In this document: positions 13,565-24,042 of the stretch, piece after piece
Numbering within the stretch: the first letter of the stretch is position 1
How the letters are laid out: the number at the start of each line of letters is the position of its first letter
DNA from: a virus
Length of the DNA: 64,000 nucleotides
Strand: one strand, 5' to 3'
Virus record (IMG/VR): IMGVR_UViG_3300027770_000057
Coordinates: 1 to 64,000 of that record
The notes under the pieces: model-generated
What the model was told of the DNA's origin: nothing
Seen by the model: only the letters and a program-made list of their open reading frames with translations
The model's database searches: none
Program-made: the position numbers and the translations under genes

Positions 13565-16093
13565 TTAAAAATTTTCTTCTGAATGATCAATATCTTCATG
13601 ATCTTGCTCAGAAGCATAGTCTTCAATATTCATATCGTATTTTTCTAAATCTTCTTTGCTTGGTTCCGCTAAAAGCGAACCAGATTGTTTTGAACTTGTA
13701 GGAGGAGTAGTACCGCCTAATTCTCCACCTGTATCAGGACTTGGAGAAGTTTCGCCACTTTCTGGTGGCTGTAATAATGTATTTGGGCCTTCAGGGGTTG
13801 CTCCAATTTCAGGATTTTCCTTAGAATCTGTTCCTTCGGCAGGAATACCTACACCAAGAAGCTGAGGATTTTGAGTAATAATTTGCATCTTAGCATCTTC
13901 AAGTTTTTGAAGTTTCATTCTTGCTACAATTTCTTCAGTCTCATCAGGAGTATACTTCATCCACTTGTTTAGAATGTCATAATCAGAAAGCATAAGAGAA
14001 CTCTTTAGAGATGTGGCATTTGTAATTCTAGCTGCCATAACATCTGCTCTGCTAAGTTCTCTCCAATCTGATGGAGGAGTCATTTTTATAGTTAAATCTA
14101 AATATGATTCTTTGGGATAACCTTTTAACCTTAAATGTCTATCAGCAATTTCCCATAAGCCATCTTCGAAGCAAGATTGAAATCTTTCAATTAATCTTGC
14201 AAATCTAACATCTTGAGCACTTAATGAAATTTTTGTAATATTTACATCTTCAACATTAAAATAATTTTTAGGAAAATTAAGTGCTGTGAATAATTTATTT
14301 CTAAAGTACAAGCAATCATCTACCTCACCTAAGTTTTGAGCACCAGGTAATGTTTCAATTTTAGTATTGCTATTTGGTCTTATTGGTAGCCAATAATCTT
14401 CGTCTTGCGAAGGAGCATGCCATTTTTCATCTACACTATTTGCACCAGATGAGTAACGCATTTGCGTTTTTCTTTTTCTAAATTGATCTTTCATTCTTTC
14501 GATAAATGATTCTGCTTTAAATGGAGGCAAAGTACCAACATCTATGTAAAAAACCCTGCGTTCTGGTGCTCTACTTAGTCTGTAAACAAGCATTGCATCT
14601 TCACATAGTCTTACTTGTTGTGCAGGTCCTCTGGCAGCTTCAACAACTGAAACACCATAAGGATAAAAGCTTTTCCTATCTTCTCCAATTCTGATGTGAA
14701 TTATTTGTTCTGGTGCAAATCTTATTGCTGTAGAATTTATCATTTGCGTATCAGTAGTAGCTACTATTGGAGAAGAAATTAAAGATGTGTAATCTGGCCC
14801 TTCTTTGCTTTGTTGAAACTCAACTATTTTACCTTTTGTAGTTTCTATTCGATACATAGAATCAACTGGCAACCTTGCAATTTTATAAATTCCCTCTGTA
14901 GGATTTTCTTGATTAATTACAATTTCCCAAAACAAATCTCCATAAACTAAAAGATTTTTAAAATCTCCCCAAACTGTACGATTTAAATTAAGCATGCTTC
15001 TGTGATAAAGCAAAAATTTTAATTCTGATTTAATATCTTCATTTTCACAAGAAATTGTAAAAATATTACCATCTGTATCTCTTTGGCAATTATGAACAAT
15101 AATTGAATCTGTTGCGAAGTTATGATGGTTTTCAACTGTCATATCATATACTTCCTGTACAGATCCTTTTTCTACAGCCATTACAACTCTTCTGTCTTTA
15201 TAAGTTTTTAAATACTTCATTTCTTTTACAGAAAATCCATTTTTGCTAAGTCTATATTTTGTAGTTCTCCAATCAACTTTAGTTAAGGTTGCAACATCTT
15301 TGCATTTTAATCCAAGGCTTATAAGTTTCGTTGTTTCGTTTATTTTTTCATATTTATTTAAATCTTTTTCAGCTTTAAATTCTTCAATAAATTGTCTTTC
15401 GTGAATCCATCCCTTTTGGTGGGTGTATATTCTTGGAAATTGATTTATTTTTGATTTTGTTAAATCTTGATTTGCTTTTAATCTATAAAATGGCATTAAT
15501 TGATCATGAAATTTTAAGTCGCCAGCTTGTTTCCAAGTTCCATTTTTCATTAAAATACGATGATCAGCAGTACATTCAATGTGTTCACCATTATCAAAAT
15601 ATACCTTTACTGTTTCTGCTGTTTTTGTAATTCTTACATCGTAAGCCCAACTTAAGGCATAATCTTCTTTTTCAAAATCATAACAATAAACTAAAAATTT
15701 CTGATTTTTCTTTATTTCATATAATTCTTTTATAGTTTTTTGACCAAAAGGCGTTGATATTTTTGTATCGCCAGCCAAGCAAGCTTCATCTGTATAAACA
15801 TTTATTACAGATTCAATTTCTGGCATAGATCTTAATCTATCATATTCCTTATATCTACTCATTCTATTTGAAATCGTAGAAAGATCTATAAAATCATTGC
15901 TTTCTCTTAGTCTTACCAACCTTTGATCTTGATTTCCATAAAATCCACCGTCTGGTGAAATAGAAGGAACTGAATCTGGATTTTGAATACCAGCACCAAC
16001 AATATCTCTCGTAGAAATCTTTTTAGAGATTGGATCATCTGAGAAAGCGTAAGTAAAAGTCTTGTAAAAATTAGCCCAAATTGGTGAAGGCAT
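13565..16093 (-). CDS. Portal vertex protein (gp20-like) containing an intein
   Basis: Of 842 residues, about 611 form the portal and 231 an intein (Cys105-Asn335). The N-extein has DRLRSMPEIESVINVYTDEA, the conserved portal region. The C-extein has YRLSRAPERRVFYIDVGTLPP and MKDQFRKRKTQMRYSSGANSV, typical of T4-like portals, and an acidic Pro/Gly-rich C-terminus. The portal dodecamer nucleates the prohead, docks terminase and passes DNA. Protein splicing is required to restore the YTDEA-CQRD junction. It lies downstream of terminase in the minus-strand head operon. Confidence 0.95.
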   Translation of the reverse strand: MPSPIWANFYKTFTYAFSDDPISKKISTRDIVGAGIQNPDSVPSISPDGGFYGNQDQRLVRLRESNDFIDLSTISNRMSRYKEYDRLRSMPEIESVINVYTDEACLAGDTKISTPFGQKTIKELYEIKKNQKFLVYCYDFEKEDYALSWAYDVRITKTAETVKVYFDNGEHIECTADHRILMKNGTWKQAGDLKFHDQLMPFYRLKANQDLTKSKINQFPRIYTHQKGWIHERQFIEEFKAEKDLNKYEKINETTKLISLGLKCKDVATLTKVDWRTTKYRLSKNGFSVKEMKYLKTYKDRRVVMAVEKGSVQEVYDMTVENHHNFATDSIIVHNCQRDTDGNIFTISCENEDIKSELKFLLYHRSMLNLNRTVWGDFKNLLVYGDLFWEIVINQENPTEGIYKIARLPVDSMYRIETTKGKIVEFQQSKEGPDYTSLISSPIVATTDTQMINSTAIRFAPEQIIHIRIGEDRKSFYPYGVSVVEAARGPAQQVRLCEDAMLVYRLSRAPERRVFYIDVGTLPPFKAESFIERMKDQFRKRKTQMRYSSGANSVDEKWHAPSQDEDYWLPIRPNSNTKIETLPGAQNLGEVDDCLYFRNKLFTALNFPKNYFNVEDVNITKISLSAQDVRFARLIERFQSCFEDGLWEIADRHLRLKGYPKESYLDLTIKMTPPSDWRELSRADVMAARITNATSLKSSLMLSDYDILNKWMKYTPDETEEIVARMKLQKLEDAKMQIITQNPQLLGVGIPAEGTDSKENPEIGATPEGPNTLLQPPESGETSPSPDTGGELGGTTPPTSSKQSGSLLAEPSKEDLEKYDMNIEDYASEQDHEDIDHSEENF
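15089..15781 (-). other. Intein in the portal protein (231 aa)
   Basis: The splice motifs are complete. Block A starts CLAGDTKISTPFG, block B is CTADHRIL (Thr175, His178), and block F/G is YDMTVENHHNFAT then IIVHN, with Cys336 as +1 residue. All nucleophiles for standard class 1 splicing (Cys1, terminal His-Asn, Cys+1) are present. The 100 residues between blocks B and F carry no LAGLIDADG motif. They contain HQKGWIHERQF and a helix-turn-helix-like stretch (KCKDVATLTKVDWRTTKYRLSKNG), possibly remains of an HNH-type homing endonuclease with its DNA-binding part. Confidence 0.95.
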
Positions 16094-16139: not shown

Positions 16140-16754
16140 ATGTTAAGTTTAAAATTATTACAAAAGAAAGCTATTTTACTTGCAAGCCATTATGGTTGTG
16201 AGGTCTTTAATTTATATAACAATTTAATTAATATCAATAGAATCAACGGATTTTTGAGGAAAAGTCCTAAAAGAATTAGTGATTACGATGATCCAGCATG
16301 TTCTTATTTATTTTCAAATAAACATTTATATCCAAAAAAAGACAAGATATATTTAGATGTTTTGTTATTTAATTACCAAATAAGCTGTAAAGAATTATTT
16401 AAAAATCAGAGTTTAGAATTTTTATTCTATTTAGGAAATGGAATTTCTACAGTAGAAAAAATTGTACAAACTACTGGATTGGAAAAAGAAGCTGCAAGAA
16501 GATATTATTGTTTTAGATTAAGAAGGCTTTGCGAAATGATAGAAAAGCTTCCAAATTGTTATGTTTTCATCGAAGGAATTTCTAAACTTGAAAATTTAAG
16601 TATTTATCTTAACGAAAAGTATAAAATTATACCTGATGTTAAATTAAATTATTCTATAAAAATTGAAAGTCAAGGAATTCCTGAAAATTGCTTTGAAAGA
16701 TATTATGCTTTTATACAGCACTGCGATGAGAAAAAATTTCTTAAAATAATTTAA
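16140..16754 (+). CDS. Hypothetical protein with HTH-like segment, 204 aa
   Basis: A + strand gene between the portal and the 105-aa gene, opposite to its neighbours. It is basic and aromatic-rich, with a possible helix-turn-helix (GISTVEKIVQTTGLEKEAARRYYCFRLRRL split as residues about 101-130), so it may bind DNA. No catalytic motif is visible. The end overlaps the convergent gene at 16751 by 4 bp. It could be a homing-type or regulatory moron, but the family is not recognised. Confidence 0.55.
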   Translation: MLSLKLLQKKAILLASHYGCEVFNLYNNLININRINGFLRKSPKRISDYDDPACSYLFSNKHLYPKKDKIYLDVLLFNYQISCKELFKNQSLEFLFYLGNGISTVEKIVQTTGLEKEAARRYYCFRLRRLCEMIEKLPNCYVFIEGISKLENLSIYLNEKYKIIPDVKLNYSIKIESQGIPENCFERYYAFIQHCDEKKFLKII

Positions 16755-20222: not shown

Positions 20223-20906
20223 ATGCCAATATCAACACCCAAAAAATTAGTATTTGTTCATGTGCCAAAAACTGGTGGCCAAACAATTTTGAAGTATTTA
20301 AAATTTGAAAGAAAAATCAGAGCTTTTTACGGTAGAACAAAACATGTTTTTGAAAATACTAAATACGGTAAAAAAACAATTTCTGGTATTGAATATAGCC
20401 ATTATACTTTAAGCCTTTTTAAAAAATATTTAAATTACAAAGAATTTAAATATTCTTTTTCTTTTGTAAGAAATCCATTTGAAAGATTAGTTTCAGAGTT
20501 TCATTGGAGAATAAGAGCAAGAATCTCGTGTTGGCCTCTCCAAGATATAGAGCTTAAACCAAGTAACTTTGAAATGTTTGTACATAAATTATCAGAATAT
20601 AAACTTAGTTATTCTGAAAAAGATCTTATCTTGGAATCTCATTATTACCCACAGACTAAATTTGTTTATTTAGATTCATATTTTGAAAATAATAATAAAA
20701 ATGCAAAGGTTTCATTTATTGGTAGATTTGAAAATTTAGAAGAAGATTTAAAAAAAATAGGATCTATTTATAATATTGATCGTATAATTCCTTGGCGAAA
20801 TTCCACATCACATGAAGACTATAAAAGTTTCTATAACAAAACTACTAAAAAGCTAGTTGAGAAAATTTATGAAACTGACTTAAATAATTTTAATTATATT
20901 TTTTGA
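20223..20906 (+). CDS. Sulfotransferase family 2-like protein (B)
   Basis: A 227-residue protein with clear carbohydrate-sulfotransferase motifs: VFVHVPKTGGQTILKYL (5'-phosphosulfate loop, about residues 10-26) and SFVRNPFERLVSEFHWR (3'-phosphate motif, about 80-96). A later FIGRFENLEEDLKKI segment is also typical of Sulfotransfer_2 proteins, and the C-terminus has YETDLNNFNY, a normal ending of the family. Expected reaction: PAPS-dependent sulfation of a sugar hydroxyl. No Shine-Dalgarno sequence is visible and the ATG is preceded by AATAAATATTAC. It is much closer to standard enzymes than copy A. Confidence 0.88.
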   Translation: MPISTPKKLVFVHVPKTGGQTILKYLKFERKIRAFYGRTKHVFENTKYGKKTISGIEYSHYTLSLFKKYLNYKEFKYSFSFVRNPFERLVSEFHWRIRARISCWPLQDIELKPSNFEMFVHKLSEYKLSYSEKDLILESHYYPQTKFVYLDSYFENNNKNAKVSFIGRFENLEEDLKKIGSIYNIDRIIPWRNSTSHEDYKSFYNKTTKKLVEKIYETDLNNFNYIF

Positions 20907-20975: not shown

Positions 20976-21848
20976 ATGGCATTTTTTCAAAATCCGTTTG
21001 AGTTTACATTTAATGGTTCTTTATTTGGGATTGGCCCTCAATACAATATTTCCTATGGAATAGGGGCAAATAGAAATAAATCTAATTATATTACTTTGTA
21101 TAATCTTGAACCTTATGATTTGTCTCAAGGAGCAGAATTAATTTTTAATGTTGCAATTGATCCAGACATGCTTCACTTTGGTTCTTTTTCTGTTACTATA
21201 ACAGGATTAGATCTTACTGCTATTACAGCTGCTGAAGTTGCTGCATCTTTAAATTCGAATGTTAATTTTAGTCAATATTTTACTGCGAAAACTATTAAAT
21301 TTGCTGCGAGCGATATTAATAGTACAGTTTTAATGGTTGCTAAAAATAGAATGTTCTTTAGATGTTATGTTTCTAATGCAAGTGCATGCTTTCCTTTAGC
21401 TATAAATAAATATGCACCAGTTAAAGAGCTTCCAGATCTTTTTCAACAATATGCTGTTAAAAATATTTTTAACTATTTAAGCTATGGATCTCAAAGAATA
21501 ATTTATCTAGATCCTTCTTCTCCTGATGATGCTAAGGTTATTACTAATGCTGGATTTGATCCTGATAATCCAACTCCTGATTGGAAGCTCCTTGCTAGTG
21601 CATCTCCTCTTTATACATTTACTAAAACAGTTTATAATTCTGAAGATTCTTCCATTTATTGTAAATTAGTTTATCACGCTGGTGCTATTGCTGGTCAAAT
21701 GTGTAAGAAAATTATTTATGAATATGATGAAAGTGAAAATGTCATTGGAGTATGTGAAATACCTTATATTTTAAAAAATGATGATTTAATATATCCAGCA
21801 ACTACAACTACAACTACAACTACAACTACAACTACTCCTACTCCTTAA
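20976..21848 (+). CDS. Putative virion protein with poly-Thr tail, 290 aa
   Basis: It starts MAFFQNPFEFTFNGSLFGIGPQYN and continues as a beta-rich, Asn/Tyr-rich protein (NYITLYNLEPYDLSQGAELIFNV, FGSFSVTITGLDLTAITAA), ending in a run of 13 Thr and Pro-Thr-Pro. No signal peptide is present. Composition and the flexible Thr tail resemble small tail or neck appendage proteins. The gene follows sulfotransferase B on the same strand with a possible late promoter between. The family is not recognised. Confidence 0.6.
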   Translation: MAFFQNPFEFTFNGSLFGIGPQYNISYGIGANRNKSNYITLYNLEPYDLSQGAELIFNVAIDPDMLHFGSFSVTITGLDLTAITAAEVAASLNSNVNFSQYFTAKTIKFAASDINSTVLMVAKNRMFFRCYVSNASACFPLAINKYAPVKELPDLFQQYAVKNIFNYLSYGSQRIIYLDPSSPDDAKVITNAGFDPDNPTPDWKLLASASPLYTFTKTVYNSEDSSIYCKLVYHAGAIAGQMCKKIIYEYDESENVIGVCEIPYILKNDDLIYPATTTTTTTTTTTTPTP

Positions 21849-22443: not shown

Positions 22444-24042
22444 ATGTTTGATTTAATAAAGTCTATAATTGATAATATTTTTGTTTTAGTTGGATTTAAA
22501 AAATCAAAAAAAGAAACTTGTCTTTTCAATAACAAACCAACAGTTCAATTGCTTAATGATCCAACAACACCAAGACTAAAAATTTCTAAAGTTATTATTC
22601 CAGCAAATTTTTTAAACTTTACTGTTAAAGGATTTAATTCAACAGGAAATATTTTATTGAGTGAATCTTGGCAAAAAGAAAATGTTTATGCAAACATTAA
22701 TGGTGCATTGGCTTACCTTAAACAATATTTTCCTCAGAATGTTAATAAATGGGCAGCAGTAAACAGTTTGACTGTTGATACTAGAGCAGGTAATGATGCA
22801 AATGCATATTACGATAGAAGGAATTTAAAGTTTTTTTATTTTAATGCCAATAAAAAAACTATTTATACATGTGATTCTGCTGATGTTGTAGTACATGAAT
22901 TAGGCCATGCTATATTAGATTCTATCAGACCAGATTTTTGGAATTTAGCAGCATTTGAAATTGGTGCATTTCATGAATCTTTTGGTGATTTAACTTCATT
23001 ATTAACTTGCCTTAGTTATGATCTATGTTTAAATTCTGTTTTAAAAGATACTAATAATGATTTGAGTAAATCAAATTTTGTAAGTAAACTTGCAGAACAA
23101 TTTGGTGTTTCATTAAAAATTGGTAATTCATTAAGAAATGCCTTGAATGATTATAATTATGTTGATCCAAAAACATTGCCTTATGATGGCAATGGATTGA
23201 TTCAAGAAATTCATAGTTTTTCTCAAGTATGGACAGGAACATTTTATGATTTGCTAGTTGAATTTTTTAATTTGTATGGTAAAAATTATGCTGCTTTAGT
23301 TAAAGCTAGAGATTTATCAGCAGAATTTTTGTATAATGCAATTCAAAACACACCATCAAATCCTAATTTTTTCAAAGCTTTAGCAACTAATTATATTTCA
23401 TACGATTTAACAAAATATAATTCTCAATATAATTCTATTTTAATAAAAGTTTTTACAAAAAGAAATTTAATTTCTGCTTCTTTATCTGATTCTTTGACAA
23501 ATAATAAATTTAATATTATGAACGAGGGAAACAATATATTATTTAAAGAAGAAAAATTTGTTTCTTTAGATGCTAAAGAATTCGATATAAATATTGATGA
23601 ATTCAATGTTCAAATTGCAGCCGATACTTACAAGCCAAAAAACAATTCGTTTAACATGCTTTCTATTGAAAATAATATAGATGAATCTTTAGAAGCAGCA
23701 AAATTATTTGTTAGATATTTAAAAAACAAAGATAGTATTGGCAATAATAAAAATCAATCTTGGGAAATTGATTCAAAAACAAATTTATTGACAAGAAAAT
23801 TTTCTTGTTATGGTGATTTGGGATTTATTAACAATTGCACAATTGAAGGTCAGCCAGAGTTTGGCAAGTGTTGGAAAGCAGAAAATAATTCTGGTTGTTG
23901 TCCTTTTGGTTGTAAAACAACCACAGAATCATCAATTCCAGAAAAACCTGTATGTAGCATAAGCTATAACAGCTGCAATAAAAGTTCTTATATTAGCTGC
24001 AACGGAACAGTTAATAGTGTTTGTAATTGTAAAACAAGATAA
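22444..24042 (+). CDS. Zinc metalloprotease (gluzincin, HELGH) with Cys-rich tail
   Basis: A 532-residue protein with a zinc site HELGH (residues 151-155) and a third ligand Glu178 in GAFHESFGD, the thermolysin (M4)-like arrangement. The SADVVVHELGHAILD and ESFGDLTSLL context agrees. The N-terminus is weakly hydrophobic (IKSIIDNIFVLVGF) but not a clean signal peptide. The last 80 residues hold about 14 Cys in GKCWKAENNSGCCPFGC and SCNKSSYISCNG segments, suggesting a disulfide-rich binding module used outside the cytoplasm. AAAGGAG supports the ATG. It could degrade host surface protein or mature virion parts. Confidence 0.8.
   Translation: MFDLIKSIIDNIFVLVGFKKSKKETCLFNNKPTVQLLNDPTTPRLKISKVIIPANFLNFTVKGFNSTGNILLSESWQKENVYANINGALAYLKQYFPQNVNKWAAVNSLTVDTRAGNDANAYYDRRNLKFFYFNANKKTIYTCDSADVVVHELGHAILDSIRPDFWNLAAFEIGAFHESFGDLTSLLTCLSYDLCLNSVLKDTNNDLSKSNFVSKLAEQFGVSLKIGNSLRNALNDYNYVDPKTLPYDGNGLIQEIHSFSQVWTGTFYDLLVEFFNLYGKNYAALVKARDLSAEFLYNAIQNTPSNPNFFKALATNYISYDLTKYNSQYNSILIKVFTKRNLISASLSDSLTNNKFNIMNEGNNILFKEEKFVSLDAKEFDINIDEFNVQIAADTYKPKNNSFNMLSIENNIDESLEAAKLFVRYLKNKDSIGNNKNQSWEIDSKTNLLTRKFSCYGDLGFINNCTIEGQPEFGKCWKAENNSGCCPFGCKTTTESSIPEKPVCSISYNSCNKSSYISCNGTVNSVCNCKTR

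What the first reader, a model, noticed from the sequence alone, without database searches (positions are those of the whole stretch)
15089..15781. Complete splicing intein in a T4-like portal protein
Seen: Cys1, TADH block B, C-terminal VHN and Cys+1 are all present, and removal rejoins YTDEA to CQRD in the conserved portal core. Known: class 1 inteins need these residues, and phage inteins favour essential DNA-metabolism or packaging proteins. Inference: portal assembly is made conditional on splicing, so virion formation could depend on redox or temperature. The middle 100 residues lack a recognisable active endonuclease.
Basis: partly seen in the sequence, partly recalled or inferred. Interest (0 to 1): 0.75.

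Follow-up and report, generated by a model that had tools for sequence, protein, structure and literature searches.

The report
Clade-fixed splicing intein in phage portal
A self-splicing protein insert (intein) interrupts the portal protein of a large group of uncultured T4-like phages, and unlike most inteins it appears in every relative we could examine, is inherited with the gene, and keeps a conserved extra domain that is not a recognisable DNA-cutting enzyme.

Summary
Window 15089-15781 (-) encodes a 231-residue class 1 intein (Cys1, TxxH, HN, Cys+1) inside a T4 gp20-type portal protein. Pfam and TIGRFAM intein models hit above their cut-offs, and a high-confidence model (pLDDT 95) has the HINT fold. 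Related portals below 40% identity have the empty site exactly here.

The less expected result is its distribution. Of the 129 distinct portal sequences with at least 54% C-extein identity that cover the site, all 129 carry the intein. All 128 below 40% identity lack it, and nothing falls between. A junction scan of 2.9 million viral contigs found no emptied allele. Splicing residues are invariant in 100 of 100 nonredundant members and length is 228-235 aa. The intein tree follows the extein tree. The ~100-residue middle domain (beta-hairpin, helix, HTH-like helices, no endonuclease) has dN/dS 0.055, as low as the splicing domain. In contrast, a second, LAGLIDADG-bearing intein occupies another site in only 10 of 125 relatives.

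So this is an old, apparently immobile, vertically inherited intein on which portal maturation very probably depends. Redox or temperature control is not supported by any evidence here. Splicing itself was not tested.

The parts
13565..16093 (-). Precursor ORF, T4 gp20-type portal protein with intein, 842 aa
   Evidence: Portal_T4 PF07230 E=1.1e-74; phrog_213 portal E=1.3e-75; PDB gp20 3ja7 E=1e-29
15782..16093 (-). N-extein, portal residues 1-104, ends ...VYTDEA
   Evidence: Aligned with intein-free portals ending ...ADES; -3 Asp 99/100, -2 Glu 100/100
15089..15781 (-). Class 1 intein, 231 aa
   Evidence: PF14890, TIGR01445 and TIGR01443 above cut-offs; AlphaFold pLDDT 95.2; Foldseek HINT
15491..15781 (-). 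HINT N-terminal part, intein residues 1-97: Cys1, block B T71-x-D73-H74
   Evidence: C1, T71, D73, H74 invariant in 100/100
15185..15490 (-). Middle domain, intein residues 98-199; no recognisable endonuclease
   Evidence: dN/dS 0.055 (0.040-0.066); G124, W125, G182 invariant in 100, E128 and E187 in 99
15371..15433 (-). Beta-hairpin plus helix (residues 117-137), motif PRIxTxxxGWxHERQFxxEW
   Evidence: Secondary structure E117-120, E124-127, H128-137; conservation
15209..15358 (-). Helical, HTH-like part of the middle domain (residues 142-191)
   Evidence: Helices H142-155, H160-166, H171-180, H185-191; 7 of 51 members hit HTH_23, best E=1.7e-4
15089..15184 (-). HINT C-terminal part (residues 200-231), VYDMTVENHHNFA...VHN
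   Evidence: His230-Asn231 invariant in 100/100; TIGR01443
13565..15088 (-). C-extein starting at Cys+1 (CQRD...), portal core, tail and stop codon
   Evidence: Cys+1 and Gln+2 in 100/100; PDB gp20 match
14575..14576 (-). Empty site of the second, mobile intein (after portal residue 506, VYRL|SRAPER); occupied in 10 of 125 relatives

Best explanation
A cis-splicing class 1 intein entered the portal gene, most simply once, in the common ancestor of a large clade of T4-like, often jumbo, phages. It became fixed and has since been inherited vertically. After translation the HINT domain should carry out the standard pathway: N-S acyl shift at Cys1, transesterification by Cys+1, Asn231 cyclisation helped by His230, then S-N shift. 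This joins ...DEA to CQRD... and releases a 231-residue intein. With no intein-free alleles left to home into, mobility is lost and no catalytic endonuclease is recognisable. Precise deletion is rare, so the phage depends on splicing to make its portal ring. The middle domain (beta-hairpin, helix, HTH-like bundle, possibly the rest of an ancestral endonuclease's DNA-binding part) is kept by selection, most likely because it has become part of the fold and of splicing efficiency. Shown: presence, fold model, invariance, fixation among sampled relatives, mainly vertical descent, selection. Inferred: splicing activity, dependence on it, loss of mobility, and the reason the middle domain is kept.
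For: Intein models above cut-off. HINT fold at pLDDT 95. Clean empty sites in distant portals. 129/129 distinct portals with at least 54% C-extein identity carry it, 128/128 below 40% lack it, none between. No true emptied junction in 2.9 M contigs; the single pattern match is a chance match in a terminase-like frame, while 63% of inteined portals would match if emptied. Catalytic residues invariant in 100/100, length 228-235. 38 of 43 strongly supported extein splits recur in the intein tree, one strong conflict; Mantel r 0.73 against at most 0.13 in permutations. dN/dS: HINT-N 0.071, middle 0.055, HINT-C 0.045, C-extein 0.032. Internal control: the second, LAGLIDADG-bearing intein is sporadic, with 6 changes for 6 carriers on the extein tree.
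Against: No splicing or virion proteomics data. Nearest neighbours agree in only 61 of 99 rows, so some recombination between intein copies is possible. That the middle domain is structural is inference.
Confidence: 0.72

Rival explanations
1. Domesticated intein with a function: the conserved HTH-like middle domain, or the cysteine set, makes splicing conditional, or the excised intein acts as a DNA-binding protein released in step with portal synthesis.
For: Fixation without evident homing; middle domain dN/dS as low as the splicing domain; HTH-family hits in several members; invariant G124, W125, G182 and near-invariant E128, R129, E187; Cys33 in 95/100.
Against: The same pattern follows if the middle domain is simply needed for folding and splicing. 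No ligand, cysteine switch or operator was tested. HTH hits are weak (best Pfam E=1.7e-4, 7 of 51 members).
Confidence: 0.2
2. Still-mobile intein with an unrecognised type of homing endonuclease in the middle domain.
For: Middle domain is conserved and not decaying; its hairpin-helix could be a remnant or variant of a beta-beta-alpha nuclease; the top viral fold match and a close N-HINT relative, in Bacillus phage SP-15, carries a larger insert with an HNH-like stretch read by eye.
Against: No empty sites in the clade to home into; mainly vertical descent; no LAGLIDADG, HNH, GIY-YIG or PD-(D/E)XK family among those shown for 51 members; the only conserved His of the hairpin, H127, is Asn, Thr or Ser in 16 of 100.
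Confidence: 0.05
3. A HINT domain that cleaves but does not ligate, so that the portal is made as two chains.
For: Not excluded without biochemistry.
Against: All ligation residues, including Cys+1 and His-Asn, are invariant in 100/100, and distant homologues have a continuous portal across this site.
Confidence: 0.03

Closest known systems
Portal-protein inteins of cluster C1 mycobacteriophages (Kelley et al. 2016, PMC5050341)
   Same: Intein in a phage portal; Cys as initiating nucleophile.
   Different: Different phages, reported 6 times among 841 genomes, and discussed together with mobile, homing inteins. Here the host is a T4 gp20-type portal and the intein is fixed across a deep clade.
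HNH-type packaging-gene inteins of phages such as Bacillus phage SP-15 (SP15_022)
   Same: Close cultured N-HINT sequence (35% identity, hhalign probability 98.9%) and top BFVD fold match.
   Different: SP-15 has a larger insert with an HNH-like motif (read by eye); only the N-HINT part aligned, the middle domains did not.
Cyanobacterial DnaE split intein (discussed in PMC3403396)
   Same: Widespread, stable, non-homing intein kept by purifying selection on splicing; a precedent for a neutral ratchet.
   Different: Split and trans-splicing, in a cellular polymerase, without a large middle domain; this one is contiguous and viral.
Ssp/Npu DnaB mini-inteins (PDB 1mi8, 4o1r, 6frg)
   Same: Same HINT fold (Foldseek E down to 2.5e-9).
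   Different: About 140-160 residues in the solved forms; here an extra ordered ~100-residue domain.
LR756511, 595 kb uncultured huge phage
   Same: Same intein at the same site, 48.7% identity.
   Different: The record has no annotation; the main text of the huge-phage paper checked does not mention inteins.

Membership tests
Class 1 intein | Cys/Ser/Thr at position 1 | tested here: met
   Cys1 in 100/100
Class 1 intein | Block B TxxH | tested here: met
   T71, D73, H74 in 100/100
Class 1 intein | C-terminal His-Asn | tested here: met
   HN in 100/100
Class 1 intein | Cys/Ser/Thr at +1 of C-extein | tested here: met
   Cys+1 in 100/100
Class 1 intein | HINT fold | tested here: met
   Model pLDDT 95.2, Foldseek to solved inteins
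Class 1 intein | In-frame insertion in an otherwise continuous conserved protein | tested here: met
   Empty site in 128 portals
Class 1 intein | Protein splicing observed | not testable with these tools
   Needs expression or mass spectrometry
Homing (full-length) intein | Known homing endonuclease domain | tested here: not met
   No endonuclease family among the 25 shown for 51 members at E<=0.1 or in the window's intein
Homing (full-length) intein | Patchy distribution with empty alleles | tested here: not met
   129/129 occupied within the clade; no emptied junction
Mini-intein | HINT domain only, no large insert | tested here: not met
   Ordered ~100-residue middle domain, conserved and under selection
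T4 gp20 portal family | Portal_T4 profile match and T4-like head gene neighbourhood | tested here: met
   terminase, head maturation protease and major head protein nearby

The most novel reading that the evidence does not exclude
A viral intein that escaped the homing cycle by domestication: its conserved HTH-like insert gates splicing, or acts after excision, so that portal availability, the nucleation point of T4-like heads, is tied to a signal or to DNA across a whole clade of jumbo phages.
Probability: 0.15. Interest if true: 0.85.

Novelty: new variant of a known kind. Interest (0 to 1): 0.55.

Why it matters
Inteins usually show patchy occupancy. A structural gene in which every sampled clade member keeps the same apparently non-homing intein, with an inserted domain under strong selection, allows a direct test of whether inteins persist through function or only through a ratchet. 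The sporadic second intein in the same gene is a built-in control. If splicing is required, portal assembly in many jumbo phages depends on a protein-splicing step that standard annotation does not report.

Tried and rejected
Relic endonuclease under neutral decay: rejected, middle-domain dN/dS is 0.055. Recent mobile acquisition: rejected by fixation and tree congruence. Ascertainment bias from an intein-containing query: checked with C-extein-only searches, same result. L180 as a distant portal that acquired the intein horizontally (an outlier): rejected, its long branch comes from a partial second intein at the contig end. L243 as an emptied allele: rejected, chance match in a terminase-like frame. 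Shared middle domain with RtcB_rel_intein2 (NF052663 aligned over the whole intein): could not be settled, since the matches listed from 398 genomes were to the RtcB parts of the profile. Middle-domain-only fold without an alignment gave pLDDT 49 and was not used. Middle domain in other phage records: only LR756511. hhalign to the SP-15 intein aligned only the N-HINT part, so descent of the middle domain from an HNH endonuclease remains a suggestion.

Full report
What is there. The minus-strand ORF 13565-16093 encodes 842 residues. Residues 336-727 are a T4 gp20-type portal core (PF07230 E=1e-74; phrog_213; solved T4 gp20 E=1e-29), in a T4-like head module with terminase, head maturation protease and major head protein. 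Residues 105-335 (window 15089-15781) score above the curated cut-offs of PF14890, TIGR01445 and TIGR01443. AlphaFold, fed with 51 relatives, gives pLDDT 95.2 and pTM 0.89, and the listed Foldseek PDB matches are inteins or HINT-like domains. It is the only intein match in the 72.4 kb record.

Empty site. Intein-free T4-like portals align through the site without a gap...NIYADES|TLKN... in Mel-JY01 and ...DILADES|TLKS... in immuto, against ...NVYTDEA|CQRD.... By collinearity with the T4 gp20 match (query 368 to T4 137) the site is near T4 residue 104-105; this is an estimate.

Distribution. Searches were made with the whole protein, with the C-extein alone from three starting points, with an intein-free portal first, with the intein, and in GTDB genomes. 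Collapsed to distinct sequences, 129 portals with C-extein identity of at least 54% to the window all carry the intein; 128 portals below 40% all lack it; none lies between; 10 are cut off before the site. A degenerate pattern for the fused junction was scanned over all IMG/VR contigs: one match, in a terminase-like frame, not a portal, although 63 of 100 inteined portals would match if their intein were cleanly removed. The carriers include contigs of 223 to 527 kb and the 595 kb record LR756511, so many are jumbo or huge phages.

Conservation and descent. Among 100 nonredundant members (<97% identity), Cys1, T71, D73, H74, H230, N231 and Cys+1 are invariant and length is 228-235. In 12 independent close pairs dN/dS is 0.071 (HINT-N), 0.055 (middle; 95% interval 0.040-0.066), 0.045 (HINT-C), 0.032 (C-extein). 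A wider set including saturated pairs gave 0.125, 0.196, 0.101 and 0.115. Extein and intein distances correlate (Mantel r 0.73, permutation maximum 0.13), and 38 of 43 strongly supported extein splits appear in the intein tree with one strong conflict. This is mainly vertical inheritance; some exchange of intein copies is not excluded (nearest neighbours agree in 61 of 99). L180 is misplaced in the extein tree because its contig ends inside a second insertion.

Internal control. Ten of 125 scorable relatives carry a second insertion after window residue 506 (VYRL|TRAPER), 395-418 residues in the six full copies measured, beginning with Cys, ending His-Asn before Thr+1, with a LAGLIDADG_3 match above cut-off in the three examined. 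On the extein tree six carriers need six changes: a typical mobile intein. The first intein behaves in the opposite way in the same gene.

Middle domain. Residues 98-199 form a beta-hairpin, a helix and a helical bundle with motif PRIxTxxxGWxHERQFxxEW and later GFxxxE. No endonuclease family is among those found in 51 members. Several members hit HTH families weakly (best Pfam E=1.7e-4). The hairpin-helix could be the non-catalytic part of an HNH-type endonuclease, as in the larger SP-15 intein whose N-HINT is 35% identical, but the middle parts did not align, so this is a suggestion. Its selection level equals that of the splicing domain, so it is not a decaying relic.

Mechanism. Standard class 1 splicing is expected from the residues (established knowledge of inteins; not tested). 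Universal retention with invariant catalytic residues implies that unspliced portal is not functional (inference). The homing cycle predicts decay and loss once all sites are filled; persistence can come from a ratchet, as argued for the cyanobacterial DnaE intein (PMC3403396), or from acquired function. A review notes that removing the endonuclease domain can inactivate splicing of the M. jannaschii TFIIB intein (PMC7765530), a precedent for structural coupling. I favour a ratchet with a structurally coupled middle domain (0.72) over acquired regulation (0.20) or hidden homing (0.05). Redox or temperature control has no direct support.

Literature. Portal inteins are known in cluster C1 mycobacteriophages (PMC5050341). 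Inteins in other phages are well known (PMC7886860, PMC12363816). The main text of the huge-phage paper does not mention inteins (PMC7162821). I found no report of a clade-fixed intein in T4-like portals in the held open-access library; most subscription papers are not in it.

Limits. Each collection search returned only the best 80 loci of 550-600 verified relatives. Nearly all sequences are metagenomic. No biochemical evidence exists here.

Noticed in passing
L078, L079, L080, L221, L232, L237, L264, L267, L403, L180; insertion after window portal residue 506: A second intein in the portal gene, 395-418 aa in the six full copies measured, with a LAGLIDADG domain where scanned and sporadic distribution; in L180 it departs from the family after about 60 residues near the contig end.
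   Followed up: partly
L240/LR756511 record 444492-447146; G006 record 126986-128008; G017 record 89475-90482: Further intein matches in the same huge-phage records (two in one 1304-residue open frame of LR756511); host genes not identified.
   Followed up: no
L403 (RXKI01000042.1): A contig binned in a Neisseriaceae MAG carries a double-inteined T4-like portal, so this bin holds phage sequence; possibly a host hint.
   Followed up: no
window 16140-16754 (+): 204-residue ORF on the opposite strand between the portal and the terminase-side genes; only a weak match to a transcriptional-regulator PHROG (E=0.025).
   Followed up: no
window 20223-20906 and 22444-24042 (+): ORFs that look, by eye, like a sulfotransferase (KLVFVHVPKTGG) and a zinc metalloprotease (HELGH) near the packaging genes.
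   Followed up: no
window 21800-21848 (+): ORF 20976-21848 ends in a run of about 12 threonines.
   Followed up: no
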